The translations under genes and the position numbers were made by a program. 64,000 nucleotides of DNA from Candidatus Brocadia pituitae (GTDB taxonomy: Bacteria > Planctomycetota > Brocadiia > Brocadiales > Brocadiaceae). The notes below the pieces were generated by a model, which saw only the letters and a program-made list of their open reading frames with translations, did no database searches and was not told the origin of the DNA. The stretch is taken from NCBI GenBank assembly GCA_017347445.1, contig AP021856.1, forward strand, positions 1,620,613-1,684,612, given 5' to 3'. This document shows, in pieces, positions 51,272 through 61,686 of this stretch (position 1 is the first letter of the stretch; each line of letters opens with the position of its first letter).

Positions 51272-51460
51272 ATGAATATCATCAATAAGACAAAAACATA
51301 TGCCGGTTCACTGCTTACCATTGCCGGTGGTGTGGGCGCAGTCCTGGCTGGGGCATATCTGTTTTCCAGAATCAGGGAAAGACAAGAGAAGGAAACCCGG
51401 CTTGAAAAAATAGAGCAAATACTCCTGAAACTGGCGGAGGTACAGAAAAAGAAGGGATGA
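51272..51460 (+). CDS. Small membrane protein, copy 2
   Basis: A 62-residue paralogue of 50119-50307 (one membrane helix, then a charged amphipathic helix). It sits between the helical protein gene and the ATPase, overlapping the latter by ATGA, so translation is coupled. This fits a stoichiometric accessory subunit. Function is unknown. Confidence 0.65.
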   Translation: MNIINKTKTYAGSLLTIAGGVGAVLAGAYLFSRIRERQEKETRLEKIEQILLKLAEVQKKKG

Positions 51461-53559
51461 AGTTTCGTATTGTTCACAATCTTCCGCAGAGGATGAGGAT
51501 TACTCTCGTCTTGCCTAAAAGGCATATTCCGGACAATTCTCAGATAGAAAACTTGTTTTTCGCTGTTGATGGAGTTCATAAGGTGTCTTTCAATGGTCGA
51601 ACCAGGGGCCTATTGATTAGATACAACGGTGATGGTGCTGTGAGAGTTGCCTTGTTAAAGATAATAAAAGAGGCACCTTTAATATTTGTAACAAAAGAAA
51701 ATATTAAACATAATAGACTTGAACAGAAAAAAAAGGCAGTGGTGTTGTCGGGAGCTTTGTTGGTTGCGAGACCAATGATACCTTTCATGCTAGCGCCATT
51801 CTTTGCACTGTATGGCGCCATGCCTGTCCTGAAAAAAGGTTTCAGGGCAACTCTGAAAAGACGCCTAAGCGTTGATACCCTTGACTCTGCAGCGATAGGT
51901 ATTTCATTGCTGAGGGGGGATTACCTGACTGCAAGTTTCATAACATTCTTTCTGAAGGTGGGCGATTACCTCGAAGAGCGGATACGTCAAAAATCAAGGG
52001 AAAGTCTTTCAAAGATGTTCCAGAATCAGGATGGGTGGGCGTGGATAAAGAGGAATGGTTATGAAACGAAGGTACATATAAAAGATATAGTTACAGGCGA
52101 CCATGTAGTGGTAAGAACGGGTAGCAGCATTCCTGTGGATGGTATTGTAGTCGAGGGTGTGGCGCTGGTCAATCAGTCGTCAATGACAGGCGAACCATTG
52201 CCTGTTTCCAAAATGGCTGGATTAATGGTGTATGCAGGTACCGTACTGGAAGAAGGCCTTCTAACAGTAAAGTCGATAAGAGTAGGTGATGCAACAAGGG
52301 TCTCCAAAATAATCAAGGTGATTGAGGAATCGGAAGGTTCGAAGGCAGATGTGCAAAACCATGCAGAAATGCTTGCAAACAAGATTGTTCCCTATAGCTT
52401 TTTATTGAGCGGGCTCACATATCTCTTTTCAGGTAATCCATTAAAGGCAGCCTCAGTACTGCTGGTAGATTACTCATGCTCCATCAAATTGTCTACCCCT
52501 TTGACACTTATGTCGGCAATGATAGTTGCCTCAAAGCGTGGTGTTCTCATAAAAGGCGGCAGATTCATAGAAAAACTAGCGCAGGCAAACATCTTTGTGT
52601 TTGACAAGACAGGAACCCTTACTGAGGCAAAGCCAAAAGTGTTAGATCTCATTCCTTTCAACGGTTTTAACCGGGAATATCTGTTGAAAAATGTGGCGTG
52701 TGTGGAAGAGCATTTCCCACATCCGGTGGCAACTGCCGTGGTGAAAAGGGCGGAGGACGAAGGGCTTGACCATGAGGAGAACCATGCCGAAGTTGAATAT
52801 ATTCTTGCCCATGGCATTGCATCAAGAATTGAAGGTAAAAGGATACTGGTGGGGAGCAAACACTTTGTATGCGAAGACAATAAGATTCGTGTGCAGCGTG
52901 AAGAGCCAGTGATAAAAGATTTTATGGACAGGGGATATTCAATACTGTATGTGGCCGTGGAAGATACGCTGGCAGGTGTTGTCGTCATTGAAGATCAGGT
53001 AAGAGAAGATGCGCAAAGATTTCTCAAGACACTTAAGGATTTGTGTGTGGGGCGCATTATCATGCTTACGGGTGACAATGATGCTACTGCACGGCATGTG
53101 GCAAAAAGACTTGGGATTGAGGAATACCACGCCCAGCTCCTTCCGGAAAAAAAGAGAGAAATAGTTAAGGATTTAAAAGACAATGGCTATGTTGTTGCAA
53201 TGGTTGGAGACGGTATCAATGATTCCCCTGCTCTATCGTATGCAGATATTGGCATCTCTCTGAAGCATGGTGCAGATATCGCCAGAGAGGCCTGTGATAT
53301 TTTGCTTTTAGATGCAGCGCTCGAAGGAATTCTTGAGGCAAGGGAGATTGCACAGGATGCCATGTTGCGCATCAAAAAGAATTTCAGATATATCATCGGA
53401 ATTAACAGCGCCTTGATGGGTCTTGGTATTGCAGGGATGATAACTCCGGTAGCTTCTGCGTTTATGCATAATGCAACAACAATTCTCGTTACCGTAAATG
53501 CACTAAAACCTTATCGTATTACTTCGCATAGTCAAAGAGAAGACAATGGCCTGAAATAA
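51457..53559 (+). CDS. P1B-type heavy-metal-transporting ATPase
   Basis: A 700-residue pump. An N-terminal HMA_2-like domain (about 1-75, NLPQRMRITLVLPKRH) lacks CxxC. Actuator motif SMTGEPLPV, phosphorylation site FDKTGTLT (Asp near 382), the HP motif in HFPHPVATAV and the hinge GDGINDSPAL show an active P1B ATPase. In the metal-binding helix the usual CPC is replaced by DYSCSIKLSTP, so the ion is not predicted; Mn-, Co- or Fe-type relatives have non-CPC patterns. It should move metal out of the cytoplasm. It ends the duplicated module. Confidence 0.9.
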   Translation: MKFRIVHNLPQRMRITLVLPKRHIPDNSQIENLFFAVDGVHKVSFNGRTRGLLIRYNGDGAVRVALLKIIKEAPLIFVTKENIKHNRLEQKKKAVVLSGALLVARPMIPFMLAPFFALYGAMPVLKKGFRATLKRRLSVDTLDSAAIGISLLRGDYLTASFITFFLKVGDYLEERIRQKSRESLSKMFQNQDGWAWIKRNGYETKVHIKDIVTGDHVVVRTGSSIPVDGIVVEGVALVNQSSMTGEPLPVSKMAGLMVYAGTVLEEGLLTVKSIRVGDATRVSKIIKVIEESEGSKADVQNHAEMLANKIVPYSFLLSGLTYLFSGNPLKAASVLLVDYSCSIKLSTPLTLMSAMIVASKRGVLIKGGRFIEKLAQANIFVFDKTGTLTEAKPKVLDLIPFNGFNREYLLKNVACVEEHFPHPVATAVVKRAEDEGLDHEENHAEVEYILAHGIASRIEGKRILVGSKHFVCEDNKIRVQREEPVIKDFMDRGYSILYVAVEDTLAGVVVIEDQVREDAQRFLKTLKDLCVGRIIMLTGDNDATARHVAKRLGIEEYHAQLLPEKKREIVKDLKDNGYVVAMVGDGINDSPALSYADIGISLKHGADIAREACDILLLDAALEGILEAREIAQDAMLRIKKNFRYIIGINSALMGLGIAGMITPVASAFMHNATTILVTVNALKPYRITSHSQREDNGLK

Positions 53560-54015: not shown

Positions 54016-55683
54016 ATGAAGATTTTATTACCTACGGTGATTATGAACAGGCGTTTCGTGTTGTATCTGTCGTTATGGGGATCTCTTCTGTTTCAGGGTT
54101 TATCTTCCGGGCAATCCCTCATGGAAGAGGGTGAGCCTCCGGAAAATTACCAGCTACAGGTCTTCCTGGAGGAAGAGGAGGCTCTTGCCAAGATTTTTGC
54201 CGGATGCGATCAGGTTGAATCCGAGATCCTTACCCTCACACCTGAAGGACTTGGGTATTTTAAGGAGCTCCTGAAACGACCGGATATTGAGGCAACCTTT
54301 GAGGTCTTTGTCGGCAAAAAGGGGACGAAGATAGACCGGTATGCGATTATTACCGAGGAGATGGGCTGCTTTCATCCGATTACGTGGATTCTCAGCGCAA
54401 ATACGGAGGGAAAGGTTCTTGATATTGCCGTGATGATCTATCGGGAAAGTCGCGGGCATGAGGTCAGCCGGAAGCGGTTTCTGAAACAGTTTGAAGGCAA
54501 GTCCCTGAAAGACCCTCTTTCGACGAATAAAGACATTATTAAGATTACCGGCGCCACCACTTCGGTACAGGCAGTTTGCCGGGGTGTGAAAAAGATGCTC
54601 GCCTTTATTCATGAATTTTATCTTAATAAAAATCCTGTTTCTGCAACACGGGCGCATCGTTTGACTCCTGACGGAGTCCGCTCTATGAAGAAATCTCGCC
54701 GTCAGCTCTTTACTACTGCGAAAACTATTGAGGGGACAAAAGCAGTGGTGGCTGCTGAAGGAGATAGTGAAAGTCAGTTCTTTTCTCTGGCAGAAAAGGC
54801 ATTTCATGAGATAGAACGCGTTGAAAGGCTTTTCAGGAAAGAATTGCGGGCAATGAATAAGGTTGCCGCGAAGACTGCCTTTCCCTGCAGTGAAGAGGTG
54901 TTTCAGGTAATGAAGCGATGTTACCAATATGGGCTGGTTACCGGAGGCGCTTTTGACATAACGGTTTCGCCGTTATTAGAACAATGGGGGATCTACCGGG
55001 GTAAACGAAAAGAGATAAAGGAAGACAGGCTCGAAACTATTCTTCAGGCGGTCTCATATAAACATGTAAAAATCGATGATGATACTACCCGCATTTCTTT
55101 TGTACATAGGGATACAAAGATCGATCTGGGGCCTGTGGTAAAAGGGTATGCAATAGACAAGGCATTGGAATTTTTTCGTAATTCGGGGCTTACCAATGCT
55201 TGCATTAACTACGGAAGTATGAGCCGTATGCTCAATGCTCCTCCCGGAAAAGATGCCTGGAAAATAGGGGTGCCCCATCCCACGAACGGAGATGCGATCG
55301 TAGGTGTTCTCCGTATGGTGAATCAGGGGATTGCCTTTGTTGGTGATTATTTGAGGTATCCTGCGGTGCAGGCTGAATCATATATGCACCTCGTGGATCC
55401 GGAAACGGGAATGCCGGCAGGGGGTGATAAACTCGCCGTGATAGCGGCAGCGCCTACTGCAGAAGAGGCGGGAATTGTGGCAACCGTCCTTTTTGTGAAA
55501 GACACAAAGGAAAGAGAAAAAGTGGCAACGATCTTTCCGTCTGCCGGGTGGTTGATTGTTTCGGATAAACCTCAGCACAGTCTCGTGTTTGAGGGTTCTC
55601 CGGGCATGATGGAAAAGTTCAGGAAAGGAGAAGAAAAGGGTTTTAAGTACGGCAGGGGCGCAGGATGTTCCTTTAGCCCATGA
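54016..55683 (+). CDS. ApbE FAD:protein FMN transferase fused to an FMN-binding domain
   Basis: A 555-residue exported protein with a signal helix (about 10-32). The N-terminal FMN_bind domain (about 80-200) contains KITGATTSVQAV, the [ST]GA[TS]-type motif whose Thr receives FMN in RnfG/NqrC-like proteins. The C-terminal ApbE domain (about 230-545) has GAFDITVSPLLEQWG, the DLGPVVKGYAID block and HLVDPETGMPAGG. The usual GGD loop is changed to NYGSM. The enzyme and its substrate are thus on one chain. It is upstream of tlpA and of the encapsulin genes and may flavinylate a partner in that redox system. Confidence 0.88.
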   Translation: MKILLPTVIMNRRFVLYLSLWGSLLFQGLSSGQSLMEEGEPPENYQLQVFLEEEEALAKIFAGCDQVESEILTLTPEGLGYFKELLKRPDIEATFEVFVGKKGTKIDRYAIITEEMGCFHPITWILSANTEGKVLDIAVMIYRESRGHEVSRKRFLKQFEGKSLKDPLSTNKDIIKITGATTSVQAVCRGVKKMLAFIHEFYLNKNPVSATRAHRLTPDGVRSMKKSRRQLFTTAKTIEGTKAVVAAEGDSESQFFSLAEKAFHEIERVERLFRKELRAMNKVAAKTAFPCSEEVFQVMKRCYQYGLVTGGAFDITVSPLLEQWGIYRGKRKEIKEDRLETILQAVSYKHVKIDDDTTRISFVHRDTKIDLGPVVKGYAIDKALEFFRNSGLTNACINYGSMSRMLNAPPGKDAWKIGVPHPTNGDAIVGVLRMVNQGIAFVGDYLRYPAVQAESYMHLVDPETGMPAGGDKLAVIAAAPTAEEAGIVATVLFVKDTKEREKVATIFPSAGWLIVSDKPQHSLVFEGSPGMMEKFRKGEEKGFKYGRGAGCSFSP

Positions 55684-55874: not shown

Positions 55875-56396
55875 ATGTCTTACGTGTGTCATTTGAGAGC
55901 AGTCTTATGTTTCGCAGTATTTGCGATGCTGTCTTTAACGGGTGTCTCCTATGCGAAGGATCCGAAAGAGATTACGTCCACAGAGTTGAAAGAGGTTGTT
56001 CGGGCTAACAAGGATAAGATCGTGTTAGTGACATTCTGGGCAACGTGGTGCAAGGTCTGCCGGGAGCATCTTCCAGAACTCAACACTCTTTACAGGAAAT
56101 ACAAAGACAAGAACGTGGAAATTATAGGGGTATCGCTGGACGATAAACCGGAAGATGTTCAAGATTTTATTCAAAGTAAGGGGATTGATTTTCTTGTTTT
56201 CAGGGCAAGGGACAAAGAGGAGATGAGTTATGTTTACCAGGTAAAGAAAATCCCCATTATCTGCTATTACAAAAATGGGAAGCTCGAACACGTCGAGGAG
56301 GGTTATACCGATCCTGCACATATTGAGGAGGATCTGCGTAGTTGCCTGGAAGGCGCCAGGCCTCCCAGCAAAGATACCCGTACGCCATCGAAATAA
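55875..56396 (+). CDS. TlpA/ResA-type thioredoxin
   Basis: A 173-residue exported thioredoxin with a signal peptide (about 8-27, AVFAMLSLTGVSYA) and the active site WCKVC in FWATWCKVCREHLP. The cis-Pro is in KKIPIICYY. TlpA/ResA proteins reduce apocytochrome c cysteines before heme attachment. Two multiheme proteins follow downstream, so a role in their maturation is likely. A strong AAAGGAGGAG precedes the ATG. The tail ARPPSKDTRTPSK is low complexity. Confidence 0.9.
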   Translation: MSYVCHLRAVLCFAVFAMLSLTGVSYAKDPKEITSTELKEVVRANKDKIVLVTFWATWCKVCREHLPELNTLYRKYKDKNVEIIGVSLDDKPEDVQDFIQSKGIDFLVFRARDKEEMSYVYQVKKIPIICYYKNGKLEHVEEGYTDPAHIEEDLRSCLEGARPPSKDTRTPSK

Positions 56397-56798: not shown

Positions 56799-57965
56799 AT
56801 GAAGGTCTGCAGAAAATTTTGTAAAAAATATCACTTTGTCTGGATTTTTGCCCTGTCTGCCATTTTCTATCTGCCACAAAATACCTCTTCTGTCTATGCA
56901 AAGTGCACGAAAGAAAATGACTGTTTTTCGTGTCACTCTTCCCAGGAATTAAGGGATGTCCATAAGACGTGCCAATATCTGAATCAGGGATGTCTTTCCT
57001 GTCATGCGGTCCCTAAAAATCTGGCAACATCATCGCCTGATTCTTCCTGTAGTGGCAAGGGTGAAAAGGGTTCTGGTGGCGATCGAAAAGGGTGCCAGGG
57101 TTCATGTGAGGGAGAAAAGGGATGCAGTGGGGGAGGCAATGGTGTTTCTTCTGATGTACAGATGGGACGTGAGGACTGGGAAAAATTACAGCGATGTGTC
57201 CATGAAACTATCGAAAAATGCCGCGTAGGCAGAAAGTTCCTGGAGACGTATGGTCCCCTCGGTGTGGGGAGCCAGTGTGTTCCTGTCGATACCTTTGGAA
57301 TACCATCATGGGCAACCGTTGACATGATGGGAGAATCTGATAATGCCATCCATGCGCTCAAACGTGAAATTGCGCACATACCGCTCATTTACAAAGATTT
57401 CTGGCTCTTCTGGAGGGACATTGAAGCAAGCAGCAAGTGTGAAACTCCCCTGGATACCAGCGCTGCAATCGGGGCTGCTGTTGCTGCGGCCGCCCGTGAA
57501 GACGACCTGGTGTTTAACGGCTTGCCGGATATGCATATAGCAGGGTTATTGAATGTGGATGGCCGTAACATCGCGAAACTGAGCGACTGGTCGGTCATCG
57601 GCAACGGGTTTCAGGACGTGGTATCTGCGATTGAGAGGTTGAGAAGTACCGGCTTTCTCCCGCCGTATACGCTTGTCGTGAGTCCAAGGCTTTATGCGCT
57701 GCTCCACAAGGTGTATGAGCGCACGGGAAAACTAGAAATCGAAGCGGTAAAAGAGATGGTAAAAGGCGGTGTATACCAGAGCTCTGTGCTGAAAAAAGAT
57801 GTAGCCCTGGTTATGGCAGCCGGCAGGCAAAATGCAGATTTGGCAGTGGGAGGAAATTTTAAGGTCGAATACTGTGGACCGGAAAACCTGAACCATCGGT
57901 TCCGCGTAGTTGGCAGTTCTGTGCTCAGGATCAAGTGCCCGCAGGCGATTTGTACCATAGAATAA
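56799..57965 (+). CDS. Diheme cytochrome c-encapsulin fusion (shell protein)
   Basis: Start ATG 56799 is 8 bases after AAAAGGAGG. The 388-residue protein has a signal peptide (about 11-34), two heme sites CFSCH (42-46) and CLSCH (65-69), a Gly/Cys-rich linker (about 80-120, with Cys84, 99, 103 and 109) and an encapsulin HK97-like shell domain (about 121-388). The last is marked by REDWEKL, GRKFLETYGPLGVGSQ and VSPRLYALLHKVYER. Encapsulins assemble into hollow protein cages; a cytochrome-bearing form is known from anammox bacteria. Export suggests that the cage sits in the anammoxosome or another non-cytoplasmic space. Its likely cargo is the next gene. Confidence 0.9.
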   Translation: MKVCRKFCKKYHFVWIFALSAIFYLPQNTSSVYAKCTKENDCFSCHSSQELRDVHKTCQYLNQGCLSCHAVPKNLATSSPDSSCSGKGEKGSGGDRKGCQGSCEGEKGCSGGGNGVSSDVQMGREDWEKLQRCVHETIEKCRVGRKFLETYGPLGVGSQCVPVDTFGIPSWATVDMMGESDNAIHALKREIAHIPLIYKDFWLFWRDIEASSKCETPLDTSAAIGAAVAAAAREDDLVFNGLPDMHIAGLLNVDGRNIAKLSDWSVIGNGFQDVVSAIERLRSTGFLPPYTLVVSPRLYALLHKVYERTGKLEIEAVKEMVKGGVYQSSVLKKDVALVMAAGRQNADLAVGGNFKVEYCGPENLNHRFRVVGSSVLRIKCPQAICTIE

Positions 57966-58301: not shown

Positions 58302-60824
58302 ATGTTCAAACAATCACGAATTTACCTTCCGATGGTGATTGTGTGCCTCCTTTTTATTCTTAAGACAGGATACGCAGAGATCCCTTGTGTGACTGGAATC
58401 GATGGAGTTGTTTCCCTGGAAATGGAGGCGCGTCCGGTTGCCATTGATCTGAGGCCTGGTGTTTTTTTTGATGCATGGGGATATTGCAGAAAAGGTGAAA
58501 GACCTACGGTGCCTGGGCCTACCATAAAAGTGCGGGAAGGGACCAAAATCATGGTTCATTTTACCAATAAGCTGGCGGTGCCTGCCTCTTTACATCCTCA
58601 CGGGGTGAAATACACCGCTGCGAATGACGGCGCTCACATAGCAGGGAATCCCACCAGTACGGTTGAACCAGGGCATTCAAGGACGTATGAGTGGGATACG
58701 AGCGGCACGCCGGGTACGTGGTTTTACCACACCCATGCCCTGGAAATGGGCGGAGATGAGGGTCTCTCCCGGGGACTCTGGGGTGCATTGATTATCGAGC
58801 CAAAAGAAGATATTGCAAACCCGCCGGACAAAGAGTTTGTTGTCTTCATGCACTCATACATGGTGAACGGGACTGAGTATGAGGCTTTTAATGATAAATC
58901 CGGTGATATTGAGTTTATGAATGGAGACAGCTCTGCATTTCCCGGCTTGATCTGGAAGGCAAATGTGGGGGAGAAGGTAAGATTTCATGTAATCAATACA
59001 GCAGAGGAGATGCATACCTTTCATACGCACGGACATCGATGGATCGACAAGGCGAGCGGGGAGTTGATAGACAATGTTTCACTTGCTCCCTTTACATCGT
59101 ATGTTGCAGAATTTACAGCAGGGGAGGGGGTTGGCCCTGGAAATTGGGCATTTCACTGTCATTTTCATGAACACATGATGAACGGTATGTTTGGAATTTT
59201 TGTTGTGGAAAAAGAAAAGATGAATGCCTGGATGTCTCCTGATACAGAGAGTCTCCCAACCCTTGATTCAGCGCCTGGTTCGTTTGAATATCCCGATCCA
59301 TTGCTCAAGAACTTGTATGAGGATTTTGTAGGGTTGAAGCAAGGTGACGGACCGTGGGGTGAATTTTACCAGCCGATACCGTTTTACATGTATTTCAATC
59401 CAACGAGACATTATTTTCCGCCTGCTGCAGAAAGTTCAAACTATAAAGAACTCCTGAACAGATACAAGCCTGATCAGTGCGTCGAATGCCACGAAGAGTC
59501 TTCACCGGGAATTGTGGCTCAGTGGAAGGCATCAAATCATGCAAAACCGAAAAAAAACCGCGAGGTCTCAGCGGAGACACAGGAGATTGAGGAATTAATC
59601 GGTAAAGAGCTAAACAACTGGGAACCGGGGACAAAGAACGGGGTGTACTGTTCTTACTGCCATGGCGACAATCACGAGAAATTATTTATGCCTACCGTTG
59701 ATAACGCCTGTGGTACCTGTCATCCACGACAGGCGGAAGAGTTTGCAAAGGGGAGAGATCACGGCAGGCCAAGTCATCCCCAGAGTTGGGAGTCTACGGT
59801 ATCTGTACCCTGGTATGTGGAAAATTACCGGCGTGGCGAGCGGTATTCGATGATCGGGTGCGACCAGTGTCATCAGAATATGTCATCGTGTGACGACTGT
59901 CATAGCAAGCATCTCTTTTCTGTTGCAGATGCCCGTCGTCCGGAGGTGTGTTCCGGATGCCATATGGGACCAGACCATCCTGATTGGGAGAGTTACGAAC
60001 ATTCCCGGTGGGGGATCATGTATAAAATTTCTGGGGAGAAATGGAACTGGGACAAGAAACTCTCTGAGATTATTCCCGGTGTGGATTACCCCGCTCCAAC
60101 GTGTCAATATTGCCATATGTATGTTGGAAATGGCCAATGGGAGATGAATGTAGAAACGAAAGGGATATGGCGTATGGGGGTTATACCGCCCGCTGAAGTC
60201 GGGTTTAAATCGGGAATCAAGGATTTCCCCTATGGGATAAAGATGCCGCCCATGGACAGGAAGCTTGAAATCTACTCCGCGGAAAGCAAGACGAAACGAC
60301 GGTACTGGGTGGAACTCTGTTCGAAATGCCACAGCAGCAGATTTTCCAGCATGTGGCTTGACTCCCTGGATCAATATATGTTTGAATCGTGGAGACGGAT
60401 CGACGAGGCACAGCTCGTGGTAGAAGAACTCTTTGCCAAAGATATGATTAGACCGTCTCCGGAAGAAAGAGCGCCTTTTCCCTTGAGCGACTTAATTGTC
60501 AAACTGCTCAGCCCAAAGGAACTGGGGCCGGATGTGTACAGCCTGTTCAAAAAGACCAGCGGCCACTTGCCGGTAATTGGGCCTGTCCTTGGCGCCTACG
60601 CCTTGTTTACCCAGAAGGACGGGAATCCCAGCGGGGTAGAGCAGGAGTATGTTCAGATGTGGTTCTGGAACCATCTGCAGGGATACAAAGGCACCGCCCA
60701 TGCACAGCCGGATATCAGCTGGTGGTGGGGCACTGCTCAAACAATGGGGAATGTGACGCGGATCCGGGATGAAGCAGTGAATTTGCGGCGTTTAAAGAAC
60801 CTTGAAGAGGCAGTTAAAAAGTAA
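58302..60824 (+). CDS. Multicopper oxidase-octaheme HAO-like fusion (probable encapsulin cargo)
   Basis: From ATG 58302 (AAGGAAG before it), an 840-residue exported protein (signal about 5-25). Residues 30-305 form two cupredoxin domains with all four copper motifs: HPHG (98-101), HTH (143-145), HTHGH (241-245) and HCHFHEHMMNGM (285-296), the last fitting HCHx3Hx4M. Residues about 380-840 hold eight CxxCH sites (CVECH, CSYCH, CGTCH, CDQCH, CDDCH, CSGCH, CQYCH, CSKCH), as in octaheme hydroxylamine oxidoreductases. Such NIR-HAO fusions accompany anammox encapsulins and are thought to handle reactive nitrogen species such as hydroxylamine, NO or nitrite. No typical LTVGSLRR-like targeting tag is seen; the C-terminus ends RRLKNLEEAVKK. 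Confidence 0.9.
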   Translation: MFKQSRIYLPMVIVCLLFILKTGYAEIPCVTGIDGVVSLEMEARPVAIDLRPGVFFDAWGYCRKGERPTVPGPTIKVREGTKIMVHFTNKLAVPASLHPHGVKYTAANDGAHIAGNPTSTVEPGHSRTYEWDTSGTPGTWFYHTHALEMGGDEGLSRGLWGALIIEPKEDIANPPDKEFVVFMHSYMVNGTEYEAFNDKSGDIEFMNGDSSAFPGLIWKANVGEKVRFHVINTAEEMHTFHTHGHRWIDKASGELIDNVSLAPFTSYVAEFTAGEGVGPGNWAFHCHFHEHMMNGMFGIFVVEKEKMNAWMSPDTESLPTLDSAPGSFEYPDPLLKNLYEDFVGLKQGDGPWGEFYQPIPFYMYFNPTRHYFPPAAESSNYKELLNRYKPDQCVECHEESSPGIVAQWKASNHAKPKKNREVSAETQEIEELIGKELNNWEPGTKNGVYCSYCHGDNHEKLFMPTVDNACGTCHPRQAEEFAKGRDHGRPSHPQSWESTVSVPWYVENYRRGERYSMIGCDQCHQNMSSCDDCHSKHLFSVADARRPEVCSGCHMGPDHPDWESYEHSRWGIMYKISGEKWNWDKKLSEIIPGVDYPAPTCQYCHMYVGNGQWEMNVETKGIWRMGVIPPAEVGFKSGIKDFPYGIKMPPMDRKLEIYSAESKTKRRYWVELCSKCHSSRFSSMWLDSLDQYMFESWRRIDEAQLVVEELFAKDMIRPSPEERAPFPLSDLIVKLLSPKELGPDVYSLFKKTSGHLPVIGPVLGAYALFTQKDGNPSGVEQEYVQMWFWNHLQGYKGTAHAQPDISWWWGTAQTMGNVTRIRDEAVNLRRLKNLEEAVKK

Positions 60825-61048: not shown

Positions 61049-61152
61049 CGGTGCTACTTTCAGAATATTTACAGGAAAATCAGGTTGATTCCTTCCTCTA
61101 AAATGCATAAAATGAAGTTAGTTATTAGGAATATTTACAAAAAGGAGATAAC

Positions 61153-61375
61153 CGTGCGTATAACTGATATTCCTGAAATTGCTAAATTAAGTACGCAGGA
61201 AAAAATCCTGTTAGTTGAAGATATTTGGGACAGCATAGCTTTGGATGAGTCTGCAGTACCCATTCCACATAGCCACAGAGATGAATTGGACAGAAGGCTC
61301 AGAATTCATGAATCTGTTCCTGGAAACCTTTTAACTCTCGAAGAACTTCAGGCTAGAATAGAAAAAAGGAAATGA
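61153..61375 (+). CDS. Antitoxin of a ParE/RelE-type module (CHP02574-like)
   Basis: Start GTG 61153 after AAAAAGGAG. The 73-residue protein begins MRITDIPEIAKLSTQEKILL, then VEDIWDSIA, typical of the CHP02574/addiction-module component family whose helix binds and blocks the toxin. The TA pair overlaps by ATGA. A longer frame to 61085 has an unlikely extra N-terminus. Confidence 0.88.
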
Positions 61376-61686
61376 CGCACAACATCCGGTTTCTTCCAGA
61401 AGTAGAAGACGATGTTGTCCGTGTATATGCATGGTACGAAGCAAAATCGCCAGGCCTTGGAGAGGAATATCTGAGCATGTTTTATGCCTGTGTTAGTGAG
61501 ATTTCTAAGAATCCCTTGCTTTATCCAAAGGTTCATAACGAATTTCGCCGCCGTTTGTTGAGAAGATTTCCATACGCTATCTATTTTATGATAAGAGACG
61601 ACAAAATTGTTGTATCTGGACTTTTTCATTGTGCACGTGATCCACGCTCAATCAGAGCGAAATTGCACGATCGGGAAACACCATAA
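61372..61686 (+). CDS. ParE/RelE-family toxin
   Basis: A 104-residue RelE/ParE-fold protein: VRFLPEVEDDV-like strand and helix (FLPEVEDDVVRVYAWYE), GLGEEYLSMF, then the C-terminal strands RRFPYAIYFMIRDDKIVV and the FHCARDPRSI tail. Members either cleave mRNA on the ribosome or block gyrase; the family cannot be told apart by sequence here. The start overlaps the antitoxin stop by 4 bases. Confidence 0.9.
   Translation: MTHNIRFLPEVEDDVVRVYAWYEAKSPGLGEEYLSMFYACVSEISKNPLLYPKVHNEFRRRLLRRFPYAIYFMIRDDKIVVSGLFHCARDPRSIRAKLHDRETP

What the first reader, a model, noticed from the sequence alone, without database searches (positions are those of the whole stretch)
58391..59215. Cargo copper domain matches two-domain laccase-type oxidases better than NirK
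The four His motifs (HPHG, HTH, HTHGH, HCHx3Hx4M) are those of multicopper oxidases with a trinuclear site. The single Cys-containing type 1 site is in domain 2, whereas classical NirK has its type 1 Cys in domain 1, where Thr144 (YHTH) stands here. The usual label 'nitrite reductase' may thus be misleading. The domain could reduce O2 or another oxidant, or act as an NO/hydroxylamine scavenger module.
Basis: partly seen in the sequence, partly recalled or inferred. Interest (0 to 1): 0.75.

Follow-up and report, generated by a model that had tools for sequence, protein, structure and literature searches.

The report
Encapsulin cargo copper domain is laccase-type
The enzyme that anammox bacteria pack into protein shells is usually called a copper nitrite reductase, but its copper half is built like a small oxygen-reducing laccase, and some relatives have lost the copper-binding residues while keeping the heme half intact.

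Summary
Window 58302-60824 encodes an 840-residue anammox encapsulin cargo: two cupredoxin domains and an octaheme HAO-like half. All 12 copper ligands of a type B two-domain multicopper oxidase are present: the T1 set in domain 2, eight trinuclear His shared between domains, and Thr144 where NirK has its Cys. Solved-structure search, predicted structure and profile comparison place it with Streptomyces-type small laccases. The tree agrees, but the formal test against a NirK grouping is borderline (p 0.061). The laccase idea is already in print (Tracey 2019). Two points I did not find in print: (1) five of 20 homologous cargos have lost copper ligands, in at least two independent events, probably including Kuenenia stuttgartiensis, while eight heme motifs stay in all 17 fusions read through; (2) the heme half is closest to 6h5l, taken to be HAOr, the nitrite-to-NO reductase without Tyr cross-link. 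So if the cargo reduces nitrite, the heme half is the better candidate. Preferred mechanism (inferred): a heme-fed, oxygen-reducing copper module on an N-oxide-reducing octaheme trimer inside the shell; its loss in some lineages argues that the copper chemistry is accessory.

The parts
58302..60824 (+). encapsulin cargo gene: two-domain multicopper oxidase fused to octaheme HAO-like cytochrome, 840 aa
58302..58373 (+). N-terminal hydrophobic stretch read as a Sec-type signal peptide (by eye, no predictor run)
58506..58808 (+). cupredoxin domain 1 (Cu-oxidase_3), residues 69-169
58593..58604 (+). HPHG, residues 98-101: trinuclear-site ligands His98 and His100
58728..58736 (+). HTH, residues 143-145: trinuclear-site ligands His143 and His145; Thr144 stands where NirK has its type 1 Cys
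58947..59216 (+). cupredoxin domain 2 (Cu-oxidase_2), residues 216-305
59013..59036 (+). HTFHTHGH, residues 238-245: His238 (T1), His241 and His243 (trinuclear)
59154..59189 (+). HCHx3Hx4M, residues 285-296: His285 and His287 (trinuclear), Cys286, His291, Met296 (T1)
59289..60821 (+). octaheme HAO-like half, eight CxxCH, nearest solved sequence 6h5l
60726..60728 (+). Trp809, aligned with the cross-linking Tyr467 of Nitrosomonas HAO (alignment may be off by one)
56799..57965 (+). family 1 encapsulin shell gene with N-terminal two-heme cytochrome extension (CFSCH, CLSCH)

Best explanation
The domain is a type B two-domain multicopper oxidase (2dMCO), not a NirK, fused in front of an HAOr-type octaheme reductase and packed in a family 1 encapsulin. 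Shown by sequence and model: the fold, the full T1 plus trinuclear ligand set with T1 in domain 2, the eight heme motifs, the missing cross-link Tyr, and the shell gene next door. Inferred: three chains join on a common threefold axis, because 2dMCOs and HAO-type cytochromes are both trimers; the trinuclear site forms between neighbours. Electrons enter through hemes (the two-heme cytochrome on the shell where present). The HAOr-like site reduces an N-oxide (nitrite, NO or hydroxylamine), and the copper half takes electrons from the hemes at T1 and reduces O2 to water, as an oxygen-removing accessory. In lineages that lost T3 or T1 ligands only the heme chemistry and perhaps a structural role remain. 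My confidence in the family assignment alone is about 0.95; the figure below is for the whole mechanism.
For: Family. Type B is defined by T1 in the C-terminal domain, with a trimer and trinuclear His from two protomers (PMC13151041, passages). HAOr-like half: best solved match 6h5l, E 3e-160, against 5e-47 for Nitrosomonas HAO; Tyr467 faces Trp809; AHAQxDxSWWxG in 16 of 17 fusions, the 17th cut by its contig end. The own-genome closest kin of 6h5l (1083 bits) follows a two-heme cytochrome gene, as Kustc0458 (HAOr) has the redox partner Kustc0457 (PMC12485887, PMC8388095, passages). [quoted passage not shown] Shell link: the same 20 of 62 genomes of the order hold the cargo domain (E at most 8e-107) and a family 1 encapsulin, in one locus each (window itself). 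Accessory copper: ligands lost in 5 of 20, a one-clade origin rejected at p 0.0006, eight CxxCH in 17 of 17.
Against: No activity, copper content or oligomer was measured; O2 reduction and heme-to-T1 transfer are inference from family chemistry. Anammox cells are anaerobic, so O2 may rarely be present. If oxygen removal mattered, its loss in Kuenenia and Loosdrechtia needs another explanation. The two-heme extension of the shell is missing in 5 genomes (G029, G003, G032, G060, G044), so it cannot be the only electron entry. The cargo-plus-NirK grouping is not cleanly rejected (p 0.061). The faster evolution of the copper half holds for four of five ligand-losing cargos, not for G031 (ratio 1.00).
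Confidence: 0.5

Rival explanations
1. Laccase or metallo-oxidase proper: T1 takes electrons from a small external reductant (phenol, Fe2+, Cu+), not from the hemes, as proposed in print for aromatic oxidation.
For: Closest kin are small laccases; MnxG and ceruloplasmin also match at E 4e-26 to 3e-19; the printed suggestion is in PMC6934571.
Against: Fusion to an octaheme cytochrome in 19 of 20 genomes (two of the 19 are cut by contig ends) suggests hemes as partner; T1 of type B enzymes faces a central tunnel, which could limit large substrates.
Confidence: 0.2
2. The copper domain is now mainly a structural or docking module (trimer clamp or shell contact) and its copper chemistry is dispensable.
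For: Ligand loss in 5 of 20, at least two origins, with open frames and the domain still 53-68% identical to the window's; faster copper-half evolution in four of the five.
Against: 15 of 20 keep all 12 ligands, including the stand-alone Scalindua rubra protein at 61% identity, which argues for active selection there.
Confidence: 0.2
3. The copper domain is a nitrite reductase after all, with T1 and T2 sites swapped between domains relative to NirK.
For: Common label NIR-HAO (PMC8346489); distant NirK similarity, E 3e-21; AU p 0.061 for cargo plus NirK.
Against: Thr144 replaces the NirK Cys; full trinuclear set; TIGR02376 gives cargo domains 30-60 bits and clear NirKs of the same order 163-271 bits; 7 of the 20 cargo genomes carry such a separate NirK.
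Confidence: 0.06
4. The trinuclear site acts on NO or hydroxylamine as a scavenger.
For: The encapsulin system was linked to hydroxylamine stress (Xing 2020; only the reference entry was seen).
Against: No sequence feature tested here points to it; the HAO-like half is a more likely site.
Confidence: 0.04

Closest known systems
Type B two-domain multicopper oxidases, SLAC group (Streptomyces small laccases, e.g. 4m3h, 3kw8)
   Same: Two cupredoxin domains, T1 set in domain 2, same four His motifs, predicted fold Z about 28
   Different: 36-38% identity in structural alignment; fused to an octaheme cytochrome and next to an encapsulin; an insert of about 13 residues of the small laccases in domain 1 is missing
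Anammox NIR-HAO encapsulin cargo (Tracey 2019 PMC6934571; Andreas and Giessen 2021 PMC8346489)
   Same: This is that protein family, with the same shell gene architecture
   Different: Copper half assigned here at ligand level; ligand loss in some lineages not found in the texts searched
Copper nitrite reductase NirK (Jettenia, 5zl1)
   Same: Same pair of cupredoxin domains
   Different: NirK has its T1 Cys in domain 1 and no trinuclear set; it is a separate gene in 7 of 20 cargo genomes
HAOr, Kustc0458 (nitrite to NO, no Tyr cross-link)
   Same: The octaheme half is nearest to 6h5l, which I take to be HAOr
   Different: HAOr has no copper domain and partners a separate two-heme protein

Membership tests
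Type B two-domain multicopper oxidase | two cupredoxin domains in one chain | tested here: met
[quoted passage not shown]
   His238, Cys286, His291, Met296
Type B two-domain multicopper oxidase | eight trinuclear His, four from each domain | tested here: met
   His98, 100, 143, 145 and His241, 243, 285, 287; the site assignment by the laccase scheme is recalled
Type B two-domain multicopper oxidase | homotrimer with trinuclear site between protomers | not testable with these tools
   single-chain prediction only
Type B two-domain multicopper oxidase | four-electron O2 reduction | not testable with these tools
   needs the enzyme
NirK | T1 Cys in domain 1 | tested here: not met
   Thr144 opposite the Cys of seven NirKs
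NirK | TIGR02376 score | tested here: not met
   51.5-55.6 bits, cut-off 296.3; the Jettenia NirK itself has only 232, so the gap, not the cut-off, is informative
NirK | groups with NirK in a tree | tested here: inconclusive
   best tree separates them; AU p 0.061
HAOr (reducing HAO) | eight c-type heme motifs | tested here: met
   8 CxxCH in 17 of 17 fusions
HAOr (reducing HAO) | no cross-link Tyr | tested here: met
   Trp809 facing Tyr467; SWW motif in 16 of 17, one cut off
HAOr (reducing HAO) | nitrite reduction | not testable with these tools
   activity known for HAOr only
Family 1 encapsulin system | shell protein next to cargo | tested here: met
   NF041155 225.7 bits, cut-off 100; 20 of 20 cargo genomes
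Family 1 encapsulin system | C-terminal cargo-loading peptide | not tested
   a review says NIR-HAO lacks a detectable one (PMC8229669, passages)

The most novel reading that the evidence does not exclude
An encapsulated, heme-wired oxygen valve: a laccase-type trinuclear copper site drawing electrons from the 24 hemes of an HAOr-type trimer, so that the compartment removes O2 while its heme sites reduce toxic N-oxides, a coupling I know from no other encapsulin; lineages in stable anoxia then dropped the copper ligands and kept a pure heme reductase capsule.
Probability: 0.25. Interest if true: 0.75.

Novelty: new variant of a known kind. Interest (0 to 1): 0.5.

Why it matters
The label 'nitrite reductase' has steered ideas about what anammox encapsulins do. 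If the copper half is an oxidase that several lineages have disabled, the conserved function must lie in the heme half. Work done in Kuenenia, whose probable genome here lacks two type 3 ligands, may not carry over to Brocadia. It also bears on the open question of which enzyme reduces nitrite in Brocadia: B. sinica is reported to lack nirS and nirK (PMC4400429, passages), and in this window's genome the NirK model's best match is this cargo, at only 49 bits. Both points are directly testable with purified capsules.

Tried and rejected
A NirK-like two-copper remnant in the Kuenenia group was considered (HCQ resembles the HCA or HCG of NirK). It was set aside because the other lost ligand, His145, is the one that faces the third T2 ligand of NirK when cargo GTWFYHTHAL and NirK GxxxxVDHxx are laid together without gaps (my reading), so the remnant is not a NirK set.

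A link between ligand loss and loss of the shell cytochrome was looked for: 3 of 5 ligand-losing genomes lack it (G029, G032, G044), but so do 2 intact ones (G003, G060). Four further intact genomes could not be judged: G040 and G010 run off their contigs, G022 shows one heme motif, G023 has a truncated frame. No claim is made.

NirK is absent from the 50 listed rows of the structure comparison and from the 60 listed rows of the sequence comparison. That is a listing limit, not an exclusion.

PF02239 (cytochrome cd1) gave two weak matches in the genome, 26.8 bits each, in 386-394 aa frames; I did not pursue NirS further. The second structure job was not used.

Full report
What is there. The ORF at 58302-60824 on the + strand follows the family 1 encapsulin gene 56799-57965, which carries two CxxCH motifs in an N-terminal extension. 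The genome is a single contig of 4.08 Mb of unnamed origin; loci of close relatives of the copper domain are named Brocadia, Jettenia, Kuenenia, Loosdrechtia and Scalindua, or unnamed Planctomycetota, so it is an anammox bacterium. The cargo has Cu-oxidase_3 (residues 69-169), Cu-oxidase_2 (216-305) and an octaheme HAO-like half.

Family of the copper half. Against all solved-structure sequences the best 50 of 60 listed matches (205 in all at E up to 0.001) are two-domain laccases, E 4e-37 to 2e-34; none of the 60 is named a nitrite reductase. A scan of one genome per species found, beyond 12 loci of the cargo family, small laccases of Streptomyces and relatives and a few others at 33-39%, within the best 80 of 188. 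The AlphaFold2 model (34 sequences, pLDDT 91.9, pTM 0.89) has 50 listed matches that are all laccases or multicopper oxidases, Z 27.8-29.3, rmsd 2.0-2.3 over 241-257 residues; the 50 listed Foldseek rows agree. Profile comparison gives E 4.3e-51 with nine small laccases and 3.4e-21 with seven NirKs. The NCBIfam NirK model gives 51.5 bits for the whole protein and 55.6 for its first 333 residues against a cut-off of 296.3. That cut-off alone is no fair test: a Jettenia NirK identical over its matched length to 5zl1 scores 232. But the gap between 163-271 bits for 11 clear NirK loci of the order and 30-60 bits for cargo domains is clean (a twelfth, in G033, is broken into pieces).

Tree. Among 38 sequences the 14 cargo domains form one clade (100/99) and the seven NirKs another (100/99); cargo plus small laccases stand together at 92/87, below the starred level. 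Forcing cargo and NirK together is not clearly rejected, p 0.061. The tree is in favour but not decisive; the ligands are the stronger evidence.

Ligands. By the standard laccase scheme (recalled; the domain-level rule for type B is in passages of PMC13151041): T1 His238, Cys286, His291, Met296; T2 His98, His241; T3 His100, His143, His287 and His145, His243, His285. All 12 are present in 15 of 20 cargo domains, the window included (numbers there are 24 lower).

Ligand loss. Five cargos lack ligands. G031 (4.4 Mb single contig, same genus code, probably K. stuttgartiensis, not named by a call): His145 to Tyr, His287 to Gln. G035: His145 to Met, His287 to Gln. G044: His145, His238, His243, His285 and Met296 changed, Cys286 and His287 deleted. 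The tree of 17 whole fusions needs two changes, and a single origin of all five is rejected (p 0.0006); four of them group at 97/97. Small laccases and the stand-alone Scalindua rubra protein have the full set, so loss is the simpler direction. On a shared topology the copper half evolves 2.3-3.4 times as fast as the heme half on the end branches of G029, G035, G032 and G044, but at 1.00 in G031. Among the 12 intact cargos the ratio is 0.10-1.50 in 11, and 4.19 on one very short branch (L065, Jettenia). The heme half keeps eight CxxCH in all 17 fusions read through; of the 20 genomes, G022 and G023 were left out because contigs end inside the gene, and G060 because it has no fusion.

Heme half. 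Best solved match 6h5l, E 3e-160; Nitrosomonas HAO 5e-47. The own-genome locus nearest to 6h5l (1083 bits) lies behind a two-heme cytochrome, as expected for HAOr (Kustc0458 with partner Kustc0457), an NO-forming nitrite reductase of Kuenenia (PMC12485887, passages). That 6h5l is HAOr is my inference from this and from recall. The cross-link Tyr467 faces Trp809. Tracey 2019 states the missing Tyr for K. stuttgartiensis (PMC6934571, passages).

Shell link. Of 62 genomes of the order, 20 have the cargo domain at E up to 8e-107 and 20 have a family 1 encapsulin; they are the same 20, and the two genes share a locus in all. In a sample of 392 genomes of the phylum the best match outside the order is E 7.5e-33. 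Seven of the 20 also have a separate NirK, in two (G044, G060) near the encapsulin.

What is already known. NIR-HAO as anammox encapsulin cargo and the cytochrome-fused shell are published (PMC8346489, PMC6934571, passages). PMC6934571 says that conserved-domain search classes the NiR part as a NiR-like two-domain laccase and suggests aromatic oxidation, or keeping the surroundings of the cell anaerobic. I found no statement about ligand loss or the HAOr affinity of this cargo in the passages read; searches. Supplements could not be read, and Xing 2020 and Kartal 2013 were seen only as reference entries.

Mechanism. Shown: the architecture, ligand sets and gene linkage. Inferred: trimer on trimer, heme-to-T1 transfer, O2 reduction at the trinuclear site, N-oxide reduction at the heme site. 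The lineages without a full copper site argue that the copper chemistry, whatever it is, is accessory.

Noticed in passing
window 54016-55683 and 55875-56396: FMN-binding/ApbE double-domain protein and a thioredoxin-like protein upstream of the shell gene; thioredoxin homologue near the cargo in 11 of 19 other genomes, FMN/ApbE homologue in 8 of 19, some weak (several stretches were short).
   Followed up: partly
window 51457-53559: ORF that reads as a P-type ATPase (by eye) upstream; homologue near the cargo in at least 3 other genomes (stretches fetched were short).
   Followed up: partly
window 61085-61686: Two small overlapping ORFs downstream that look like a toxin-antitoxin pair, 97-99% identical and in the same place in G017; not searched in family libraries.
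   Followed up: no
L074 and L073: A separate NirK lies near the encapsulin in G044, whose cargo copper site is the most decayed, and in S. rubra (G060).
   Followed up: partly
L068, L071, L072, L073, L074: Shell protein without the two-heme extension in G029, G003, G032, G060 and G044.
   Followed up: partly
L062:10649-11149: A second, shorter encapsulin frame next to the full one in G021.
   Followed up: no
L042 and L043: Two near-identical beta-propeller-like proteins matching the cytochrome d1 profile weakly, at two places of the genome.
   Followed up: no
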